DNA from: Oscillospiraceae bacterium | Lineage (GTDB): Bacteria; Bacillota; Clostridia; Oscillospirales; Acutalibacteraceae | NCBI GenBank assembly: GCA_015066295.1 | Contig: SVOR01000003.1 | Span: 1 to 64,000, forward strand | DNA length: 64,000 nt | Reading direction: 5' to 3' | In this document: one piece after another, positions 7,601 to 62,517 of the stretch | Layout: the number at the start of each line of letters is the position of its first letter | How positions within the stretch are numbered: position 1 is the first letter of the stretch | Translations under genes and position numbers: made by a program | Notes under the pieces: model-generated | Database searches by the model: none | What the model saw: only the letters and a program-made list of their open reading frames with translations | Told to the model about the DNA's origin: nothing

Positions 7601-8158
7601 GTGACAAAAACAAAAAGTTGTTGTTTTACGGGCTACCGACCCCATAAGTTCGGTTTTGAGTTTTCACCCGAAAATAAAGAGTTTGTTTCCCTTGAAAACA
7701 AGCTTATTGACGCCGTTTTTTCGTTGGCAGATGAGGGCTGTTATAAATTCTATTGCGGTATGGCAATGGGCTTTGACCTGCTTGCCGCCGAGAGTGTAAT
7801 AATGCTTAAAAAACTATACAAAAAAGCGCGTATAGATTTAGTCGCCGTTATCCCTTTCGAAAAGCAGAGTGATGCGTGGGACGAGCAGTGGAAAAGCCGC
7901 TACCAAAGGGCTCTTCGTCAGGCCGATTCGGTGGTGTATATTTCGCGGGAGTATAAAAAGGGCTGTTACCACACCCGCAACTGCTATATGGTTGATAATA
8001 GTGATACCATAATTACGTGGTACGACGGGCAGTCGGGCGGTACCGCCGCAACACTTAACTATGCTACACGCAAGGGCAAAAAAATAGTTAATTTATCCGA
8101 TAGCGGCGCCCACGAATATATAATGGATTCACCATACGATATAGTTTATGATGAATAG
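7601..8158 (+). CDS. SLOG-superfamily protein (DUF1273/YpsA-like)
   Basis: The 185-residue Rossmann-like protein has CFTGYRPHKFGF at the N-terminus and GMAMGFDLLAAESV near residue 62, the glycine-rich nucleotide-binding loop of the SLOG group. Relatives include B. subtilis YpsA and DprA-like proteins, thought to bind nucleotides or ADP-ribose derivatives; the precise role is unknown. Start is GTG after AAGGAG. It lies 11 bases after the AraC gene. The stop codon is the first TAG of a TTTAGGA repeat tract. Confidence 0.75.
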   Translation: MTKTKSCCFTGYRPHKFGFEFSPENKEFVSLENKLIDAVFSLADEGCYKFYCGMAMGFDLLAAESVIMLKKLYKKARIDLVAVIPFEKQSDAWDEQWKSRYQRALRQADSVVYISREYKKGCYHTRNCYMVDNSDTIITWYDGQSGGTAATLNYATRKGKKIVNLSDSGAHEYIMDSPYDIVYDE

Positions 8159-8196
8159 GATTTAGGGGTTAGGATTTAGGATTCAGGATTTAGGGG
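8156..8196. repeat. TTTAGGA/TTAGGGG tandem repeat tract, copy 1
   Basis: Five imperfect 7-base units (TAGGATT, TAGGGGT, TAGGATT, TAGGATT, CAGGATT) run from the stop codon of the SLOG gene into a terminator. Four other tracts occur in this window, all at gene ends. Confidence 0.8.
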
Positions 8197-8220
8197 CGAA
8201 CAAAGTTCGCCCGTTTTTTT
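8193..8220 (+). terminator. Rho-independent terminator after the SLOG gene
   Basis: GGGCGAAC (8194-8201) and GTTCGCCC (8205-8212) form an 8-bp stem with AAA loop, followed by seven or more T. Confidence 0.85.
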
Positions 8221-8260: not shown

Positions 8261-8332
8261 ATAAAATGTTAGATTTTTTCATTAAATATATAACATTTTA
8301 TTGTTTTTTCGAATAAAAATCTTTGTTATAAT
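8261..8332 (+). promoter_or_regulatory. Inverted-repeat operator and promoter of the large secreted protein
   Basis: ATAAAATGTTA (8261-8271) and TAACATTTTAT (8291-8301) form a perfect 11-bp inverted repeat around a 19-bp spacer. A -10 box TATAAT lies at 8327-8332 with no good -35, which fits activator dependence. The same inverted repeat, with the same 26-bp gap from the right half-site to a -10-like box, recurs at 62152-62222 beside the AraC gene. The leader from 8333 to 8474 carries no evident gene; a GGAGGA site precedes the ATG at 8475. Confidence 0.7.
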
Positions 8333-8474: not shown

Positions 8475-11400
8475 ATGAAAGGCAAAAAACTTTCAAAAGC
8501 ATTGGCTTTTCTATTGGCCGTTGTAATGGTTTTCACAACGTTGCCGATGTTTGCCTTTGCTGAAGGTGAGGCAGAAACATATTGTGTTACTAAAGCTTCA
8601 CCCGCAATTCCTATGAATGCCATGACGCAGGTAAAACTTAGTGATTTAACATTTGAAATCGGCGATTCAATTGTTAATGGCGCTAATGTGGAAATCACAT
8701 TAGACGACACTACTAGCGATGTGGCTATCGGCAATGGTATTATTGTTGCTTATAACAAGGGTGCATACCCCGCAACAATCAGTTATCAAGGCCAAACACA
8801 GACTGTTTACATAGTAGTAAAGAGTTTAAGCGACACCGAATGGGTGCTTTACGAGCAAACATTTGGTGATTACTCGGCCGCTACTACTGAAAATCCTGTA
8901 CCGATTCCTGATGGTTGGGTTTCACAGGCTTACGCAAGTGAGAGCCATCTCGATGCTTCAATAAGATATACATACGTTGAATTTGAAAACGTAAGACCTT
9001 ATGCAACCAGCAATAATACGTTTACGGCCCCCGGTGTTGTACCGATTGGTAAGTACAGAGATTTACCGGGTGGTGTTAGCATGTATGGCGCACCGGCATA
9101 TTTTACACTTAATGATAGTGTTGTAAAGGATTTTGCCGATTACACTATAACCTCTAATATGATTATATATTCTAACAACTACTATTGTGCTTATACTACT
9201 TCACCGGTTGGCGCAGGTCTGTTTGGTCGTGCGCAGGTTAGTGCTACAGGTAGAATGGATGTAGAAAACACCGACTTTAGTGCTATTGTCGTTGACCCTG
9301 CGTCAAGAACTAAGGACGGCGTTGCATACGGTCTAAACGTAGCTCATCTTAAGATGATATCAAAACCCAACAACAGTAATGTTCGCGCAAAGAAAACGGC
9401 AACATTCTTTAAGGAGAATGATGCAAACATTCGTTGGAGCTACCTAAACGGCAAACAAAATAAAGAAGTTTCTTTAACACTTAAATACGACGGTACAACC
9501 GCTACATTATCATCATCTGCAGATACCGAGGCACGTACCTTTACTGTAAGCGACATTGCTGACAATAATGGTGCAGTTGGTGTTGCCGTACAGCAGTTCG
9601 ACGATAGCGGTCAGACAACAGCCGTTAATGTTAAGACCTTTAAGGTTGCACTTAATAACGCACCTGCCGATTGCCCCGTTTATAGCGATATTCCCACCTA
9701 TGAAGTTTCTAAAACGTCACCTGCTATCCCAATGAATGCCATGACTAAGGTTAATATGGCTGACCTTAGTTTTGAAATTCAGGACACTACAGTTAATGGT
9801 AAGTCGGTTGAGCTTACATTGATTGATAATACCGATAATGTAGTAATTAGTGACGGCGCTATTTTTGCTTACAAGAAGGGTATCTACGCCGCTACTTTAA
9901 CCTACGAAGGCGTAGAAAAGACTGTATATATTGTAGTAAAGGACGCAGAGGATAAAGAATGGGTGCTTTACGAAGAGACGTTTGGTGATTATTCAGACGT
10001 TACCTATGAAAGCAATACTGCTTTCCCTGCTGGTTGGGCTGCACAGGCTTATTTAGCAAAGGATGTAAAAGACCTTTCTAATAATGTCTTGACCGATCTT
10101 CAATATTCGTATTTTGATTTCCCGTACGTTTCACCGTATAAAACAAGCTATTACGATATGACTGCCGTGGCACCCGGTATCAACCCGATACCTTCTACGC
10201 GTCTACATCCTGATTACCAATTCAAGGCGTATGGTATGACCGGTTATATGATTCTTAACGATAGCGTTGTAAACGCATTTGCCGATTATACCATTACTTC
10301 AAATATGGTTGTTTTTGGTAACGCTCTATACGTTACACAGGGCACAACGGCAGGTGGCGGTCTATTTGGCCGTGCTATCGTTAATGCTGACGGTAAGTTT
10401 GAAGAAGAATTGACATCACTTACCGGATTTTTAGCTCAACCGACAACCGACCATAACGGCAATGCTGACACCGGTTTACACGTTCATCAGTTAACCGTAA
10501 CTCCGAAATCCGGCGCTACCAACGTATCAGTTTCAAGAACAAAGCTTACCAATAGTGCTTCAAGCACTCAGTGGGAATATTTAAGAGGTAAAAACAAGAA
10601 GGCAATAGACCTCTCTGTTAAATTTGATGGCGCAAAAGCTACACTTTCTTCACCAAGCGATGCAGCCGGAGTTAACTACGTAGTAAATGACGTTGCACAA
10701 AACAATGGTGCAGTTGGTGTTGCTACCAGCTATTTCGATGACGGTGGTCAGGCTACCGTTGTGGTTGTAAAAGAGTTTAAGGTTGCTCTTAACAACACTG
10801 CAGGTTATTGCCCCGCTTATAGCGAGCTTTCAATCTATAAGGTTGACGACAATACACCCGTTGTTCCGATGACTGCTCACTCATACACCAACCTTGCTAA
10901 CGTTATGTTAAGCTTTGGCGATGACCTTGTGTTAGCAAATGCTGCAGAGTGGACTTCACTTGATGAGCAGCCCGTATTTGAAGGCTCGAAGGTTACCGTT
11001 TACGGTGCAGGTACATATACCGCAAAGGCCACCTATAAGGGTGTTACCAAAACTGTTTACTTCGTAGTTAAAAATGCCGATGACGCAAATTACGTTGTTT
11101 ACGGTGCTGACTTTGACCGTGACGTAGGCAACGATTGGACACTTTATAACGGCAGTTTTGCTGTGCTTGATAAGACCGACGTTTACAACGATACGTCTAA
11201 CTACGAGATGTTCAATGGCTTTAAGATTGCCCAAAACAACTATTTGATGCTCGATAACGAGATTATCAGGAACCTGCGCGACTACACAATGAGTGTTGAG
11301 TTTGGTTACAGCGGCACAATGAGTGATAACTCATGGGGTTGTCTATATCTATTAGGACGTGCTGACGTAACAGTGCCTACTGCCGACTTTAACACCGCAA

Positions 11401-13403
11401 TGGTAGGCTTTATGCCGAGATTATCGTCAACACCTATCCGTTTGTTCTACAGGAACGATAAATATAACACCAACTGTAAGGATACCGCAGAGCAAGATTA
11501 CATCTATACCGTTGGTGATTTAGTAGAAGCAACCGTTAAGCTAAATGATAAGCAGGTTATCGCTACTATTGATGGTGTAGAAATTTACGACACCTTAAAG
11601 GATTCAGCTTATACCGCCACTATGAGAGACCGTCTCCCCGTTACGGGTGGTAACGTAGGTCTTAAGGCTTCCTACAACTATGCAATTAAGCGTTACGAAA
11701 TAAGACTTAACGCCGAAACAGTTGAGGGTGCACCTGCTTGCGCACCGCTTAACAACGTTCTTACCAACAACACCCTCTATATGACCGAGGGTACACGCCT
11801 CGCTATGTCAGACGTTAAGCTTGTATTCGGTAATGAAACCGTAGCAGGCGACAAGGCTAAGTGGAGCTACGTTCGAAATGACGTAACAGAGGTTAGTGAC
11901 TTCTTCAAGACCGTTTGTGCATTTACTGAAGGCAGTGAGAATATCACCGCCACCTACAATGGTCAGACCATCAACATCACTATTGTTGTTGAGACAGTTA
12001 AGACCGCTAACACCTATCCGGTGCTTACTTCAATGGTTGAGACCGACGGTAACGGTACAGCCGTTATTAAGCCGGTAGCAGATGACAACTATGCTTATCA
12101 AATTGCCATAACACCTAATGCAGGTTACGTTGTTGATACTGATAAGTCATACGTTTACAGCTACAAGACAACCATTAAGATGCTTGGACGTACTGCAGAC
12201 AGCACAGGTAACACACTTGTTGCCGACTTTGACGCACTTGACGACATTGTAGTTAACCTAACCTTTAAGGCTGACAAAGCTGCTGACGTTACCATGATTG
12301 GTAGCACCATTCGTTACGCAAATGAAGAAACAGGTGTTACCAACGGTATTCGTTTTGGTATGCGTTCATACAACGTTAAGAATGCAAGAATTGATACTAT
12401 AATCGTTGATGGCGTTGAGTATAATGTTGTTGGCGTAGGTATGGTAATGTTGCCGAAACCCTTGCTTGAGGGTGAGCTCACTGTAAACACCAAGAACGCA
12501 CGCTATAAGGAGTTTACCTCGGTAGTTGATTCTACCGCTAACTATGCCGACTTTGCAATGGTGCTTACAAATCTTCCTGAGGAATATCTAACACTTGATA
12601 TTGCTTCACGCGGATTTATTAAGTACGAAATCTCTGAAGGCAATTACGGTTACTACTATGCAGACGAATTACAAAGCTCGTTTGAAAAAATCGAGAAGCG
12701 TATCGAATCTGCAGAGCTCAAGTTTGACTTCTATTATTCTGATTTCGATAAGGGTTATATAACCATGGTTTACGACGACTACCGTGGTGACTTAGGTACA
12801 GTATTTAGTATCTTTGAAGAGAAAAATGTACCTCTCGTTGCTGCAATTCCGCCCGAAACCGTAACCTCTGACAGTAAAGCTGCATTACTTCACAATATTC
12901 AGAATGCAGGCGGCGAAATCATTGGTCACCACTTCACAGTTCTGACATCTGCTATGACTTCAGAGCAGAAGTTTGATAAGCTCAAGACAACCTACGATGT
13001 ATTAACAAGCTACGGACTAAATGTTAATGGTTATATATTAGCAGGTGGTACCAACCAGGGCGATATCAACCGTAAGGAAATTGAAACAATGCTTAGAAAG
13101 ATTGGTTTCAGTTATAGTGATCTTTATGGTATTTCACCTAACTACTACCATCCACGTTCTTCAATGGCTACAAGTAATGATAGCACAATTAAGAAAAATA
13201 TCACTACTGCGGGCAATAGCAAAACATGGCTTTCATTCTATGCTCATGACCTTAATACAGAACGTACGGCAGATGAGTTGCGCGAACTCATTGAGTATAT
13301 CCAGGCTGACCCTAACGTTGAGATTGTTACATATAAGTACATCTATCAAAACTTTGGTAACTTCCGTAATCCTGTAAATTGGAATAACGGTGTTACACAG
13401 TAA
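8475..13403 (+). CDS. Large secreted modular protein with polysaccharide-deacetylase-like C-terminus
   Basis: The 1642-residue exported protein has a signal peptide (residues 1-28, ending MFAFA). Three tandem modules of about 375 residues begin near residues 42, 415 and 793. Each pairs a short Ig-like unit (SPAIPMNAMT in the first two) with a LamG-like beta-sandwich that starts near WVLYEQTFGDY. A partial fourth Ig unit begins near 1095. A beta-rich region at 1275-1415 is common in clostridial surface proteins. The last 215 residues resemble polysaccharide deacetylase: YITMVYDDYRGD with an Asp pair, then GEIIGHHF. The usual HxxxH metal motif is not evident, so activity is uncertain. No sorting signal is seen. 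Its promoter carries an operator shared with the AraC gene at 60400-62142, which itself contains this protein's repeat module. Confidence 0.75.
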   Translation: MKGKKLSKALAFLLAVVMVFTTLPMFAFAEGEAETYCVTKASPAIPMNAMTQVKLSDLTFEIGDSIVNGANVEITLDDTTSDVAIGNGIIVAYNKGAYPATISYQGQTQTVYIVVKSLSDTEWVLYEQTFGDYSAATTENPVPIPDGWVSQAYASESHLDASIRYTYVEFENVRPYATSNNTFTAPGVVPIGKYRDLPGGVSMYGAPAYFTLNDSVVKDFADYTITSNMIIYSNNYYCAYTTSPVGAGLFGRAQVSATGRMDVENTDFSAIVVDPASRTKDGVAYGLNVAHLKMISKPNNSNVRAKKTATFFKENDANIRWSYLNGKQNKEVSLTLKYDGTTATLSSSADTEARTFTVSDIADNNGAVGVAVQQFDDSGQTTAVNVKTFKVALNNAPADCPVYSDIPTYEVSKTSPAIPMNAMTKVNMADLSFEIQDTTVNGKSVELTLIDNTDNVVISDGAIFAYKKGIYAATLTYEGVEKTVYIVVKDAEDKEWVLYEETFGDYSDVTYESNTAFPAGWAAQAYLAKDVKDLSNNVLTDLQYSYFDFPYVSPYKTSYYDMTAVAPGINPIPSTRLHPDYQFKAYGMTGYMILNDSVVNAFADYTITSNMVVFGNALYVTQGTTAGGGLFGRAIVNADGKFEEELTSLTGFLAQPTTDHNGNADTGLHVHQLTVTPKSGATNVSVSRTKLTNSASSTQWEYLRGKNKKAIDLSVKFDGAKATLSSPSDAAGVNYVVNDVAQNNGAVGVATSYFDDGGQATVVVVKEFKVALNNTAGYCPAYSELSIYKVDDNTPVVPMTAHSYTNLANVMLSFGDDLVLANAAEWTSLDEQPVFEGSKVTVYGAGTYTAKATYKGVTKTVYFVVKNADDANYVVYGADFDRDVGNDWTLYNGSFAVLDKTDVYNDTSNYEMFNGFKIAQNNYLMLDNEIIRNLRDYTMSVEFGYSGTMSDNSWGCLYLLGRADVTVPTADFNTAMVGFMPRLSSTPIRLFYRNDKYNTNCKDTAEQDYIYTVGDLVEATVKLNDKQVIATIDGVEIYDTLKDSAYTATMRDRLPVTGGNVGLKASYNYAIKRYEIRLNAETVEGAPACAPLNNVLTNNTLYMTEGTRLAMSDVKLVFGNETVAGDKAKWSYVRNDVTEVSDFFKTVCAFTEGSENITATYNGQTINITIVVETVKTANTYPVLTSMVETDGNGTAVIKPVADDNYAYQIAITPNAGYVVDTDKSYVYSYKTTIKMLGRTADSTGNTLVADFDALDDIVVNLTFKADKAADVTMIGSTIRYANEETGVTNGIRFGMRSYNVKNARIDTIIVDGVEYNVVGVGMVMLPKPLLEGELTVNTKNARYKEFTSVVDSTANYADFAMVLTNLPEEYLTLDIASRGFIKYEISEGNYGYYYADELQSSFEKIEKRIESAELKFDFYYSDFDKGYITMVYDDYRGDLGTVFSIFEEKNVPLVAAIPPETVTSDSKAALLHNIQNAGGEIIGHHFTVLTSAMTSEQKFDKLKTTYDVLTSYGLNVNGYILAGGTNQGDINRKEIETMLRKIGFSYSDLYGISPNYYHPRSSMATSNDSTIKKNITTAGNSKTWLSFYAHDLNTERTADELRELIEYIQADPNVEIVTYKYIYQNFGNFRNPVNWNNGVTQ

Positions 13404-48166: not shown

Positions 48167-49549
48167 ATGAAAATTGTTGTTTGCATCCGACAAGGGTTGG
48201 ATGGCGATATAAACCCATTTGATGCCTGCGCTTATGAGGCGGCATTGCAAATTGCGGGCAGTGAAATCACGCTACTCAGTATGGGTCCCGAAAAAACCAA
48301 GGACTTTTTGCATCAGCTAACGCGCAGAGGTGCAAAAAATGCTGTTTTGCTTAGTGACGCCGCCTTTGCGGGCGCCGATACCTTGGCAACGGCTTACGCA
48401 CTCGGGTTAGCCATCAAAAAAATAAAGCCCGATATGGTTTTTTGCGGCAGACAAACCTTGGTGGGTGATACCGCGCAAACGGGACCAATGCTTTCTGTTA
48501 TGTGCGATTATTCGCTTATAACGGGCGTAATGGAAATAAAGCAGATAGATAAAAATATCACCTGTATGACACGTACAGAGGGCGAAATTACGGCGGCGCT
48601 TCCGACACTTATAACGGTTGAGCGCATTAACAATCTGCGACTTCCTTCAATACGCTCTAAAACGGGCGAAATTGAGGTCTGGTCGGCCGACGATATTGGT
48701 GCCGATAAGAGCAAATGCGGTCTTATCGGCTCGCCAACTCGGGTGCTTAAAACCTACGAAAACTCACAGGGCAAGCGCAAATGCAAATTTATCACCCTCA
48801 GTGAGCTAGATGAAGTTGTAACCACCGCCCTTGCCGAGCAGAGCAAAAAGCTCGACATTAAAAGCAGTGGCGAGCATAAACTCAAAAAGGTTGTAATAAT
48901 AGGGGAGAACGTTCGCGAATTTGCCGATACTATAAGTGATGACATTTGCTTGCTAACCAACGATGACGAGCAAAAAATTATTGATTATATAGTTAATAAT
49001 AAACCGAATGCGGTTTTGTGGGGCAGTGATGCGCGCTCAAAGCGTATGGCGGCTACCGTAGCCGCAAGGCTCGGGCTCGGTCTTTGCGCCGACTGTACGG
49101 TACTCGAAACCGATGGCGAAAAGCTCATTATGTACCGCCCCGCACTCTCGGGTAGTATAATTGCTAAAATCGAGAGCCTGACAAAGCCCGCAATGGCAAC
49201 CGTACGCACAAAGGATTCGCTTAATAAGGACGTCTTTGTTGCGGTGGGCTATGGCGCAAAAGATAGTCTCGAATGGGTTAAAGACTTGGCGAAAAAGTAT
49301 GATGCCGAGCTATCCTCAACCCGCAAAGCAGTGGATAACGGCATTATGCCGTACGCCACACAGGTCGGTCTTACGGGTCGCAGCGTGGCACCCCCCGTAT
49401 ATATTGCGGTGGGTGTTTCGGGCGCTGTTCACCATATCGTTGGTATGCAGTCGTCGGGCACAGTAATCGCTATAAACAGCGATAAAAATGCCGATATATT
49501 CGACTATGCCGATTACGGCATAATTGAGGATATAGGATTTAGGATTTAG
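48167..49549 (+). CDS. Fused electron-transfer flavoprotein, beta and alpha subunits (EtfBA)
   Basis: The first 230 residues are EtfB (KIVVCIRQGLDGDINPFDAC, FCGRQTLVGDTAQTGPMLS). The rest is EtfA, with the FAD domain GRSVAPPVYIAVGVSGAVHH near residues 405-424. ETF is normally two proteins; the fusion fixes stoichiometry. It passes electrons between the GlcD/GlcF-like flavoenzyme of this operon and NAD/ferredoxin carriers, perhaps by bifurcation. ATG at 48167 follows GGGAGCGA. Its last six codons and the stop lie in a TTTAGGA repeat. Confidence 0.9.
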   Translation: MKIVVCIRQGLDGDINPFDACAYEAALQIAGSEITLLSMGPEKTKDFLHQLTRRGAKNAVLLSDAAFAGADTLATAYALGLAIKKIKPDMVFCGRQTLVGDTAQTGPMLSVMCDYSLITGVMEIKQIDKNITCMTRTEGEITAALPTLITVERINNLRLPSIRSKTGEIEVWSADDIGADKSKCGLIGSPTRVLKTYENSQGKRKCKFITLSELDEVVTTALAEQSKKLDIKSSGEHKLKKVVIIGENVREFADTISDDICLLTNDDEQKIIDYIVNNKPNAVLWGSDARSKRMAATVAARLGLGLCADCTVLETDGEKLIMYRPALSGSIIAKIESLTKPAMATVRTKDSLNKDVFVAVGYGAKDSLEWVKDLAKKYDAELSSTRKAVDNGIMPYATQVGLTGRSVAPPVYIAVGVSGAVHHIVGMQSSGTVIAINSDKNADIFDYADYGIIEDIGFRI

Positions 49550-49556
49550 GGTATAG
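49531..49556. repeat. TTTAGGA tandem repeat tract, copy 4
   Basis: TATAGGATTTAGGATTTAGG continues to GTATAG, overlapping the last codons of the EtfBA gene and reaching the terminator. Confidence 0.75.
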
Positions 49557-49590
49557 AAAACGGGCGACCATCGGTCGCCCGTTTTTGTTA
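49557..49590 (+). terminator. Rho-independent terminator of the sugar operon
   Basis: AAAACGGGCGACC (49557-49569) and GGTCGCCCGTTTT (49573-49585) form a perfect 13-bp stem with ATC loop. Confidence 0.92.
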
Positions 49591-49605
49591 AATAAATATC
49601 TACAA

Positions 49606-49634
49606 TTGAAAAATCATATTATATATGGTAAAAT
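49606..49634 (+). promoter_or_regulatory. Promoter of the BspA-like protein gene
   Basis: TTGAAA (49606-49611), 17 bp, TAAAAT (49629-49634), 41 bases before the start codon, which is preceded by GAGGGAGG. Confidence 0.65.
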
Positions 49635-49675
49635 ATAAATGTATATGATTTTATGCTTTCGAGGGAGGCAAAATT

Positions 49676-60355: not shown

Positions 60356-60400
60356 GTGGCACCTTCCTTACGGAGGGTGCCACAAAGGGTGTTGTTTTTT
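60356..60400 (-). terminator. Terminator-like hairpin of the AraC gene ending at 60400
   Basis: GTGGCACCTTCC (60356-60367) and GGAGGGTGCCAC (60372-60383) form a 12-bp stem with one wobble pair, 17 bases past the minus-strand stop codon. The following sequence is not T-rich, so efficiency is uncertain. Confidence 0.6.
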
Positions 60401-62142
60401 TATTGTCGTTTAAGACTTTTAATATATTGCGTGGGTGTTTGCCCAAACTCTTTTTTAAACGCAAATATATACGAGTCGGGGCTTTTATATCCAAGCATTT
60501 CGGCGGTACGATGTATTGTTCTATTTTCAACTCGCAATAGATTTTTTGATGCTGCAAGTTTTTTCGAGATTATATATTGTTGCAATGTCATACCTGTTTC
60601 GTTTTTAAACACTGTGCTTAAATATTTACTGTTAAATCCGAATTTAGCGGCGATTGTCTCAACGGTAATCGTATTCCAATTATTGTTGCCGTTTTTATCA
60701 AGAAATGCTTTTATTTTAGACGATATGGATAACGCCGATGCATCCTCTTGATTTTTTGTTGCATTATCGCAGGCAATAAGCAGGGAATTTATAATATCGA
60801 AAAGCTCTTTTGGATTTTTGGTATTCTTTGCTTTTTCAAAAGTTTTATCGGCATCGGGTAGTGTGAAAATCATATTATAGGCAAGGTCGGGTATTTCTAT
60901 ATTGGTATCAAAGCCTATCCACACGTATTTCCAGTTTGCATTGTTTGCTTTAAAATAGAATTCGCTGTTTGGCGGCAAATAAAAGCAACGTCCCGTATTG
61001 GCACGGATAATACAATTGGATTTTGTGTCGCGTTTGGGTAAAGCAGATAATATATCCGCCTGTGCCTTTTGGCAGGTACGTGTGTTCGGGCGAGTAATCA
61101 GCTTATAATCGCTTACCGTAATTATTGCGCCGGCAGGCTGTGAGTAGGACGCGGCACAATAATCCGATTTAGCTATCGGTCTGTTCTTTTGATTAAGCCT
61201 TGTAATAAAGCCCATACGCTTATAAACCCAAAAGCCGTTATCTGTTGTGAAAATTTCACATGATAGGGTATAGTCGGCAAAATGCTTTACAATATCAGAA
61301 TTCAGCTTTAAAACAAATGGGATTACATTGTTGGTAATTTCCAAAAAAGCTTTAAAGGGTCCGCTTTCAATAAGTTTAACGTTTTTGAGCGGCAGCTTAT
61401 CAAAAAACTGTTCTACGGTAAACGGGTTGTCTTCTTTATTCCAATTTTTAAATTCGTAAGAAAATAAAACAAAATTGCCGTCCTTATCGGTTTTGCTTAC
61501 AATGAAGAACTTTTTAACCCTTTTTTGATATTCGCCGTAAAGGGTGTAGACGCCTTGCTTTTTAACCTTAAAGGTATTGTTTTTTAAAACTACGTCCGCT
61601 TCTTCACAGCTCCACTTAATTTGTCTGCCATTCACTGAAATTTTTTGTGAAAAGCCAAAGTTAAAATCATTTAAATTATATTCCGTATTAATGCGAATGG
61701 GTATTGCCGGGCTTGAATACTTTACGGTGTGTGGGGTGTTTGGCGCTATGGCATTTTTGTTATTAAGCGTTATGTTAAAGTTTTTGATATGTATAGCCAT
61801 ATCGTGCGAATATATACCTACCGTGCCGTTGCTCGTTGGTATTTTTTGCTTTTTACCTATAAAGGCGGGGTCTTTTTCGGTGTCGTATAATTCAATTTCG
61901 TCGTCGCCATTTTTCGCTATATACATTTTTATGTGTTGCCCGTTAAAACAAGTGCGCAAATTATAAATAACGTCGGTGCGTCTAATTGTACCACTGCCCG
62001 AGGTTGTAAAACCAAAAACGTGGTAGGGTATTCTAAAAGGCCCGCAAAGACTGTTTGCAGGTTCGCTTTCTTCGTTTACTGTTTTGGGTGTTATGTATAT
62101 ATCGCCGTGTGTTATATTTTGATAGTTTTTTAAATCGTCCAT
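60400..62142 (-). CDS. AraC-family regulator with an Ig/LamG-like module inserted in its cupin domain
   Basis: The 580-residue protein starts with an AraC cupin (YHVFGFTTSGSGTIRRTDVI, residues 40-59). The cupin resumes only near residue 376 (NCIIRANTGRCFYLPPNSEF, then WKYVWIGFDT). Residues about 64-372 are an insert matching the repeat module of the secreted protein at 8475. It has IELYDTEKDPAF, SSPAIPI with NLNDFNF, and SDIVKHFADYTLSCEIF. The half-sandwiches are in permuted order. The C-terminal helix-turn-helices (TVETIAAKFGFNSKYLSTVF, TAEMLGYKSPDSYIFAFKKE) are intact, so it should bind DNA. No signal peptide. The operator in its promoter is shared with the 8475 gene. Confidence 0.85.
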   Translation of the reverse strand: MDDLKNYQNITHGDIYITPKTVNEESEPANSLCGPFRIPYHVFGFTTSGSGTIRRTDVIYNLRTCFNGQHIKMYIAKNGDDEIELYDTEKDPAFIGKKQKIPTSNGTVGIYSHDMAIHIKNFNITLNNKNAIAPNTPHTVKYSSPAIPIRINTEYNLNDFNFGFSQKISVNGRQIKWSCEEADVVLKNNTFKVKKQGVYTLYGEYQKRVKKFFIVSKTDKDGNFVLFSYEFKNWNKEDNPFTVEQFFDKLPLKNVKLIESGPFKAFLEITNNVIPFVLKLNSDIVKHFADYTLSCEIFTTDNGFWVYKRMGFITRLNQKNRPIAKSDYCAASYSQPAGAIITVSDYKLITRPNTRTCQKAQADILSALPKRDTKSNCIIRANTGRCFYLPPNSEFYFKANNANWKYVWIGFDTNIEIPDLAYNMIFTLPDADKTFEKAKNTKNPKELFDIINSLLIACDNATKNQEDASALSISSKIKAFLDKNGNNNWNTITVETIAAKFGFNSKYLSTVFKNETGMTLQQYIISKKLAASKNLLRVENRTIHRTAEMLGYKSPDSYIFAFKKEFGQTPTQYIKSLKRQ

Positions 62143-62151
62143 ACGTCACCT

Positions 62152-62222
62152 ATAAAATGTTAGATTTCTTAGTAATTATATAACATTTTATTGTTTTTTT
62201 CAAGAAAAAATTCGGGTAAAAT
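62152..62222. promoter_or_regulatory. Shared inverted-repeat operator between the AraC gene and the plus-strand RNA
   Basis: ATAAAATGTTA (62152-62162) and TAACATTTTAT (62181-62191) form a perfect inverted repeat with 18-bp spacer. The sequence continues TTGTTTTTT as at 8301. A plus-strand -10-like box TAAAAT lies at 62217-62222, at the same distance from the right half-site as at 8327. On the minus side the repeat is 10 bases from the AraC start codon, suggesting autoregulation. Confidence 0.7.
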
Positions 62223-62226
62223 AAAA

Positions 62227-62400
62227 ATGGTCCTATTAAATTTAATAGTGACCTCCTAGTATTTACGTATGGCTGATGTAGAACGCTTATTTTAAGCGGT
62301 TATGCATCGGTCATACGGTTGTACACATTTATTTAATATTTAAAATGGTGAGGGAGAAGAGATTACCTGGAGTGACCTCTGGACTTCGGCCATGAACAAA
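62227..62400 (+). ncRNA. Structured RNA candidate, possibly 6S-like
   Basis: No protein fits. ATGGTC (62227-62232) pairs with GGCCAT (62388-62393) to close the structure. Inside, ATGGCTGATG pairs with CATCGGTCAT over ten bases and is capped by AACGCTT/AAGCGGTT. CTCC pairs with GGAG further out. A terminator follows at 62418. Size (about 170-200 nt), single long stem with open middle, and an upstream -10 box suggest a small RNA; 6S RNA is one possibility, but I cannot confirm a family. Confidence 0.45.
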
Positions 62401-62417
62401 CAGTAATATTTAGCAAA

Positions 62418-62456
62418 AATCCCGACAGAGTATTCTGTCGGGATTTATTTTTTTTA
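62418..62456 (+). terminator. Rho-independent terminator of the RNA candidate
   Basis: AAATCCCGACAG (62418-62429) and CTGTCGGGATTT (62435-62446) form a perfect 12-bp stem followed by T-rich sequence. Confidence 0.9.
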
Positions 62457-62517
62457 TTGTAAAATATAAAAATTTATGATAGAATTACTGTGAGTAAAAA
62501 TATATCGAGGTATATCT

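What the first reader, a model, noticed from the sequence alone, without database searches (positions are those of the whole stretch)
8261..8332. The same inverted-repeat operator controls the secreted protein and the AraC gene 54 kb away
ATAAAATGTTA with TAACATTTTAT occurs at 8261-8301 and 62152-62191 with 19- and 18-bp spacers, near-identical flanks (GATTT on the left spacer, TTGTTTTTT after the right arm), and the same 26-bp gap to a plus-strand -10 box (8327 and 62217). With the shared protein module this suggests that the AraC protein regulates itself, the RNA candidate and the secreted protein as one circuit.
Basis: partly seen in the sequence, partly recalled or inferred. Interest (0 to 1): 0.72.

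Follow-up and report, generated by a model that had tools for sequence, protein, structure and literature searches.

The report
Operator linking AraC regulator and lectin-module proteins
The matching inverted repeats are most likely the binding site of a locally encoded AraC-type regulator that would switch on a huge secreted protein while limiting its own gene; unusually, the regulator's sensor part looks like a slice of that secreted protein's own lectin-like repeat.

Summary
ATAAAATGTTA/TAACATTTTAT occurs as a perfect inverted repeat at 8261-8301 and 62152-62191 and nowhere else in the 1.54-Mb genome; no dinucleotide shuffle of the window reproduces it. A paralogous circuit on contig C36 explains it: a second full-length AraC paralogue (39% identical) is divergent from another secreted-module gene. 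A related operator (half-site-N17-half-site) lies there and before two more secreted-module genes (C21, C18). In all five promoters the right half-site ends exactly 25 nt before the -10, the forward promoter has no -35, and the right half-site fills the spacer of the reverse promoter, which is near-consensus only at the two araC loci. This geometry predicts activation of the secreted gene and autorepression of araC. The 'RNA candidate' at 62 kb is a scar: a two-hairpin leader and the 3' end of a small-peptide gene, left by deletion of the secreted gene that once faced AraC. The AraC sensor is a register-shifted Ig/lectin slice of the secreted tandem array, predicted as a circularly permuted concanavalin-like fold. 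Full-length fusions were seen only in this genome. Binding, ligand and regulation remain inferred.

The parts
8261..8301 (.). class A operator, standalone copy: ATAAAATGTTA-N19-TAACATTTTAT
8327..8332 (+). -10 TATAAT of the secreted-protein promoter, 25 nt after the operator; no recognisable -35 (best 2/6)
8475..13403 (+). secreted protein (1642 aa): signal peptide-like N-terminus, tandem Ig-like plus LamG/ConA-like modules, C-terminal region 37% identical to a polysaccharide-deacetylase-family protein (C28)
60400..62142 (-). AraC1 (580 aa): LamG C-half, Ig, LamG N-half, linker, AraC HTH pair (HTH_AraC E=6e-17)
62152..62191 (.). class A operator, divergent copy: ATAAAATGTTA-N18-TAACATTTTAT
62175..62203 (-). 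araC1 promoter TTGAAA-N17-TATAAT (11/12); the right half-site fills 11 of the 17 spacer bases
62217..62222 (+). forward -10 TAAAAT, 25 nt after the operator; remains of the lost secreted gene's promoter
62229..62253 (+). leader hairpin 1 (counterpart in C36 and C21 leaders)
62267..62316 (+). leader hairpin 2; stem kept in C36/C21 with compensatory changes
62347..62406 (+). 3' end of a small-peptide gene (GEGEEITWSDLWTSAMNKQ*), no start codon in frame: deletion scar
62417..62456 (+). intrinsic terminator of the lost operon

Best explanation
The inverted repeat is the operator of AraC1 (60400-62142, minus). An AraC1 dimer contacts two facing half-sites. The half-site next to the forward promoter abuts the position of the missing -35, so bound AraC1 would recruit RNA polymerase to a promoter that has only a -10 (activation of the secreted protein at 8475). 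At the araC1 locus the same half-site fills the -35/-10 spacer of araC1's own near-consensus promoter, so binding would repress araC1 (autorepression). The 62-kb operator once faced a secreted-module gene, since deleted except for its leader hairpins and the 3' end of the downstream small-peptide gene, so 8475 is now the only intact target of class A. A paralogous AraC2 with a diverged operator (class B) runs a parallel circuit at C36, C21 and C18. The signal is probably read by the lectin-fold sensor of AraC, recruited from the secreted modules. Shown: sequence, geometry, genome-wide copy number, paralogous circuit, homology of sensor and module, and the remnant pieces at 62 kb. Inferred: binding, activation and autorepression, the deletion event, glycan-type ligand.
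For: Only two exact copies in the genome. A sequence model of all five promoters finds exactly those five (40-55 bits) with the next hit at 14.4; these five trained the model. Leave-one-out inside class B still ranks each omitted site far above background: 57, 50 and 43 against at most 17. All five have exactly 25 nt between right half-site and -10. Forward promoters match the -10 at 5-6/6 and the -35 at 1-2/6; reverse promoters match 11/12 at both araC loci and 8-9/12 at the three standalone sites. AraC2 is divergent from a secreted-module gene on C36. In E. coli the RhaS site overlaps the -35 by 4 bp at rhaBAD and ends 1 bp upstream of it at rhaT (PMC9429829), a similar geometry.
Against: No binding or expression data. 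Class B half-sites are imperfect palindromes (8-10/11). AraC1 and class A are paired only by adjacency. The sites are related by descent, so part of their similarity could be history rather than selection. Four of the eight secreted-module genes whose upstream DNA was compared (C23, C24, C38, C26) lack the operator.
Confidence: 0.75

Rival explanations
1. The two sites are only a duplicated promoter region that came along when secreted genes or regulators duplicated; the palindrome is not a regulator site.
For: 63 bp at 89% between the two sites, and class B sites are also alike beyond the arms.
Against: The perfectly conserved positions are the arms (0/22 against 11/43 differences). Palindromy and the 25-nt spacing persist across classes whose sequence has diverged. 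Surrounding DNA is otherwise unrelated. Forward promoters lack a -35.
Confidence: 0.12
2. The operator belongs to another DNA-binding protein (a global regulator) and AraC1 is just one of its targets.
For: Nothing here ties AraC1 to the site physically.
Against: Only five sites in the genome, all at secreted-module or module-AraC genes. Two paralogous AraC proteins go with two diverged operator classes, each adjacent to one.
Confidence: 0.1
3. The repeat is a mobile-element end, recombination site or invertible promoter.
For: Inverted repeats near surface-protein genes can be phase-variation sites (general knowledge).
Against: Two exact copies only, unequal spacers (18 and 19), always at a fixed distance from a -10.
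Confidence: 0.03

Closest known systems
RhaS/RhaR operators of E. coli (AraC/XylS family)
   Same: Inverted half-sites next to or overlapping the -35 of the activated promoter (PMC9429829 for the -35 overlap; inverted half-sites from general knowledge)
   Different: Different half-site sequence and sensor; the same operator also covers the regulator's own promoter; targets are secreted module proteins
YSIRK-targeted surface antigen regulator (TIGR04094)
   Same: AraC-type regulator encoded beside the surface protein it is thought to control (general knowledge of the model); best NCBIfam match of the HTH
   Different: Only the HTH matches (55 and 72 bits against a cut-off of 200); sensor region unrelated
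AraC of araBAD
   Same: Regulator divergent from target, activation plus autorepression (general knowledge)
   Different: AraC half-sites are direct repeats and looping is used (general knowledge); no looping site was sought here
Concanavalin A-like / LamG jelly rolls
   Same: The AraC1 sensor model matches a circularly permuted glucanase (1ajo, Z 11.7, rmsd 3.4, 168 aligned) and concanavalin A (Z about 10)
   Different: Intracellular, split by an inserted Ig domain, joined to an AraC HTH; no sugar-binding residues tested

Membership tests
AraC/XylS family (PF00165/PF12833) | C-terminal pair of HTH motifs above gathering score | tested here: met
   HTH_AraC 61.8 bits (cut-off 26.6), HTH_18 57.3 (33.6)
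AraC/XylS family (PF00165/PF12833) | N-terminal cupin AraC_binding domain (common, not universal) | tested here: inconclusive
   PF02311 at residues 380-412 only, 14.9 bits against 21.1
RhaS-type activator site | Inverted half-sites with the promoter-proximal one at the -35 of the activated promoter | tested here: met
   11/11 palindrome at both window sites; right half-site ends 2 nt before the 17-spaced -35 position
RhaS-type activator site | Binding by the AraC-family protein and activation | not testable with these tools
   needs EMSA or reporter
TIGR04094 YSIRK surface antigen regulator | Full-length score above 200 | tested here: not met
   55.2 and 71.6 bits, HTH only
Known structured RNA (Rfam) for 62.2-62.5 kb | Score above a family's gathering threshold | tested here: not met

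The most novel reading that the evidence does not exclude
A secreted effector's own repeat module was captured, out of register, as the cytoplasmic sensor of its regulator. AraC1 would then sense either the same glycan that the secreted module binds outside, or unexported secreted protein through module-module contact (secretion-backlog feedback).
Probability: 0.2. Interest if true: 0.75.

Novelty: new variant of a known kind. Interest (0 to 1): 0.52.

Why it matters
It gives a small, fully laid-out pair of paralogous circuits (two regulators, two diverged operators, five promoters) in which regulator and target share a protein module. This makes co-evolution of operator and DNA-binding domain, and recruitment of an effector domain as a sensor, directly testable. 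It also shows a regulator that kept its promoter region after its neighbouring target was deleted.

Tried and rejected
Rfam on the 62-kb RNA gave no family; sub-threshold hits are mostly terminator hairpins. Single-protein and alignment scans of viral and genome contigs found no module-AraC fusion; the last found only HTH matches (pattern-based, so not exhaustive). A structure of the whole AraC from two sequences was poor (pLDDT 39), so a module-slice alignment was used instead. Weak operator-model hits in genus mates (22 bits or less) are partial matches without the full two-half-site plus -10 arrangement; the best lies just past the 3' end of a plus-strand gene, and I dismissed it. The AraC beside a secreted gene in G003 (L117) has no module and only HTH similarity. 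An 'invertible promoter' reading was considered and dropped: unequal spacers, two copies only. Literature searches for an AraC regulator with a concanavalin-like or LamG sensor found none that fits (open-licence papers only, titles and abstracts read).

Full report
Observation. Both inverted repeats are present at the stated coordinates. They are the only exact copies in the 1.54-Mb, 44-contig genome; none occur in 59 relatives. In 100 dinucleotide shuffles, perfect 11-bp inverted repeats with loops of 3-30 averaged 0.88, and no shuffle had one arm sequence at two loci. The arm-to--10 gap is 25 nt in both.

What surrounds it. The secreted protein (8475-13403) carries tandem modules of an Ig-like domain plus a LamG-like domain. 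Seven further genes with this module were read in the genome: C36, C23, C24, C18, C21, C38 and C26. Some carry acetyl xylan esterase-like or metallophosphoesterase domains, and a GH5 ORF follows the C18 gene. AraC1 (60400-62142, minus) has one full-length paralogue in the genome, AraC2 at C36:638-2377 (39% identity over the whole length), and AraC2 is divergent from a secreted-module gene starting at C36:2588.

A second, parallel operator. Aligning upstream regions showed a diverged operator (class B) between AraC2 and its neighbour, and upstream of the C21 and C18 genes: AAATTTATT-type half-site, N17 between the 11-mers, facing half-site. In all five promoters the right half-site is followed by exactly 25 nt and then TATAAT/TAAAAT. 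A sequence model trained on the five finds exactly these five in the genome (40-55 bits) and then drops to 14.4. They score by construction, but leave-one-out within class B still recovers each omitted site at 57, 50 and 43 against a background of at most 17. Genus mates have no convincing copy.

Mechanism. Forward promoters have a good -10 and essentially no -35 (1-2 of 6), as expected for activator-dependent promoters. The reverse promoter is TTGAAA-N17-TATAAT (11/12) at both araC loci, with the right half-site filling 11 of the 17 spacer bases; at the three standalone sites the reverse promoter is weaker (8-9/12). One dimer would therefore activate the secreted gene and repress araC. The geometry resembles RhaS, whose site overlaps the -35 by 4 bp at rhaBAD and ends 1 bp upstream of it at rhaT (PMC9429829). 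Binding and regulation are inferred, not shown.

The RNA candidate. A BLAST of 62200-62460 hit three other loci over 65 nt. These are the 3' ends of a 46-aa peptide gene (MKKYVNPALTTEEISVEDVITVDYTVDGEGEEITWSDLWTSAMNNQ). At two of the loci (C38, C30) it directly follows a large secreted-module gene; at C39 the contig ends too soon to tell. At 62347-62406 only the last 19 codons and the stop remain: 10 synonymous and 1 non-synonymous codon differences, with an in-frame stop 2 codons upstream and no start. The bases before it (62229-62316) match the two-hairpin leader of the C36 and C21 secreted genes (fold z-scores -6.7 for the window and -4.2 for C36). In hairpin 2 an A-U pair is lost on both sides and a C-G pair is replaced by U-A (read by eye). 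The best reading is that the locus is a scar: the secreted gene that once faced AraC1 has been deleted, leaving promoter, leader, peptide tail and terminator. An assembly join cannot be excluded without reads.

The sensor. AraC1 residues 1-340 align to the secreted array out of register: C-half of LamG, Ig, N-half of LamG. AlphaFold2 with 15 such sequences gives pTM 0.70, mean pLDDT 67, Ig domain mostly above 90. The best VIA-align match is a circularly permuted beta-glucanase (1ajo, Z 11.7, rmsd 3.4 over 168 residues), then concanavalin A-type lectins (Z about 10). Foldseek alone gave low TM-scores, so the fold is suggestive rather than firm. Full-length module-AraC fusions were found only in this genome among 398 family and 394 order genomes.

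Verdict. The operator reading is well supported and extended by a paralogous circuit; the RNA part is corrected. The operator logic is of a known kind; the unusual part is a regulator whose sensor derives from its target's repeat module.

Noticed in passing
window 8156-8197; also L008, L059, L063: A dispersed TAGGATTTAGGGGTTAGGATTTAG repeat occurs at several intergenic places in this genome, often next to terminators.
   Followed up: partly
L060/L062/L063 (C38, C30, C39): A family of about 46-aa peptides (MKKYVNPALTTEEISVEDVIT...) encoded right after secreted-module genes at C38 and C30; relatives in one genus mate; no NCBIfam match.
   Followed up: partly
window 62254-62258 and C36/C21 leaders: Between the two leader hairpins lies an unpaired CUCCU, complementary to the AGGAG ribosome-binding site of the secreted genes; a possible translational switch.
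   Followed up: no
window 49454-49647 +: Rfam STnc540 (an enterobacterial sRNA) scores just above its threshold (38.5 against 38); probably a chance match in this genome.
   Followed up: no
L117 382-1236 and 1447-2328 (genus mate G003, C47): An ordinary 284-aa AraC regulator without the module is divergent from a secreted-module gene, a possible unfused counterpart of the arrangement.
   Followed up: partly
L058 1727-2692 and L055 2100-3554: Large secreted-module ORFs in C18 and C23 are each followed closely by a separate ORF (GH5 in C18; in C23 its C-terminus resembles that of the single C21 protein), possibly a split gene or frameshift.
   Followed up: no
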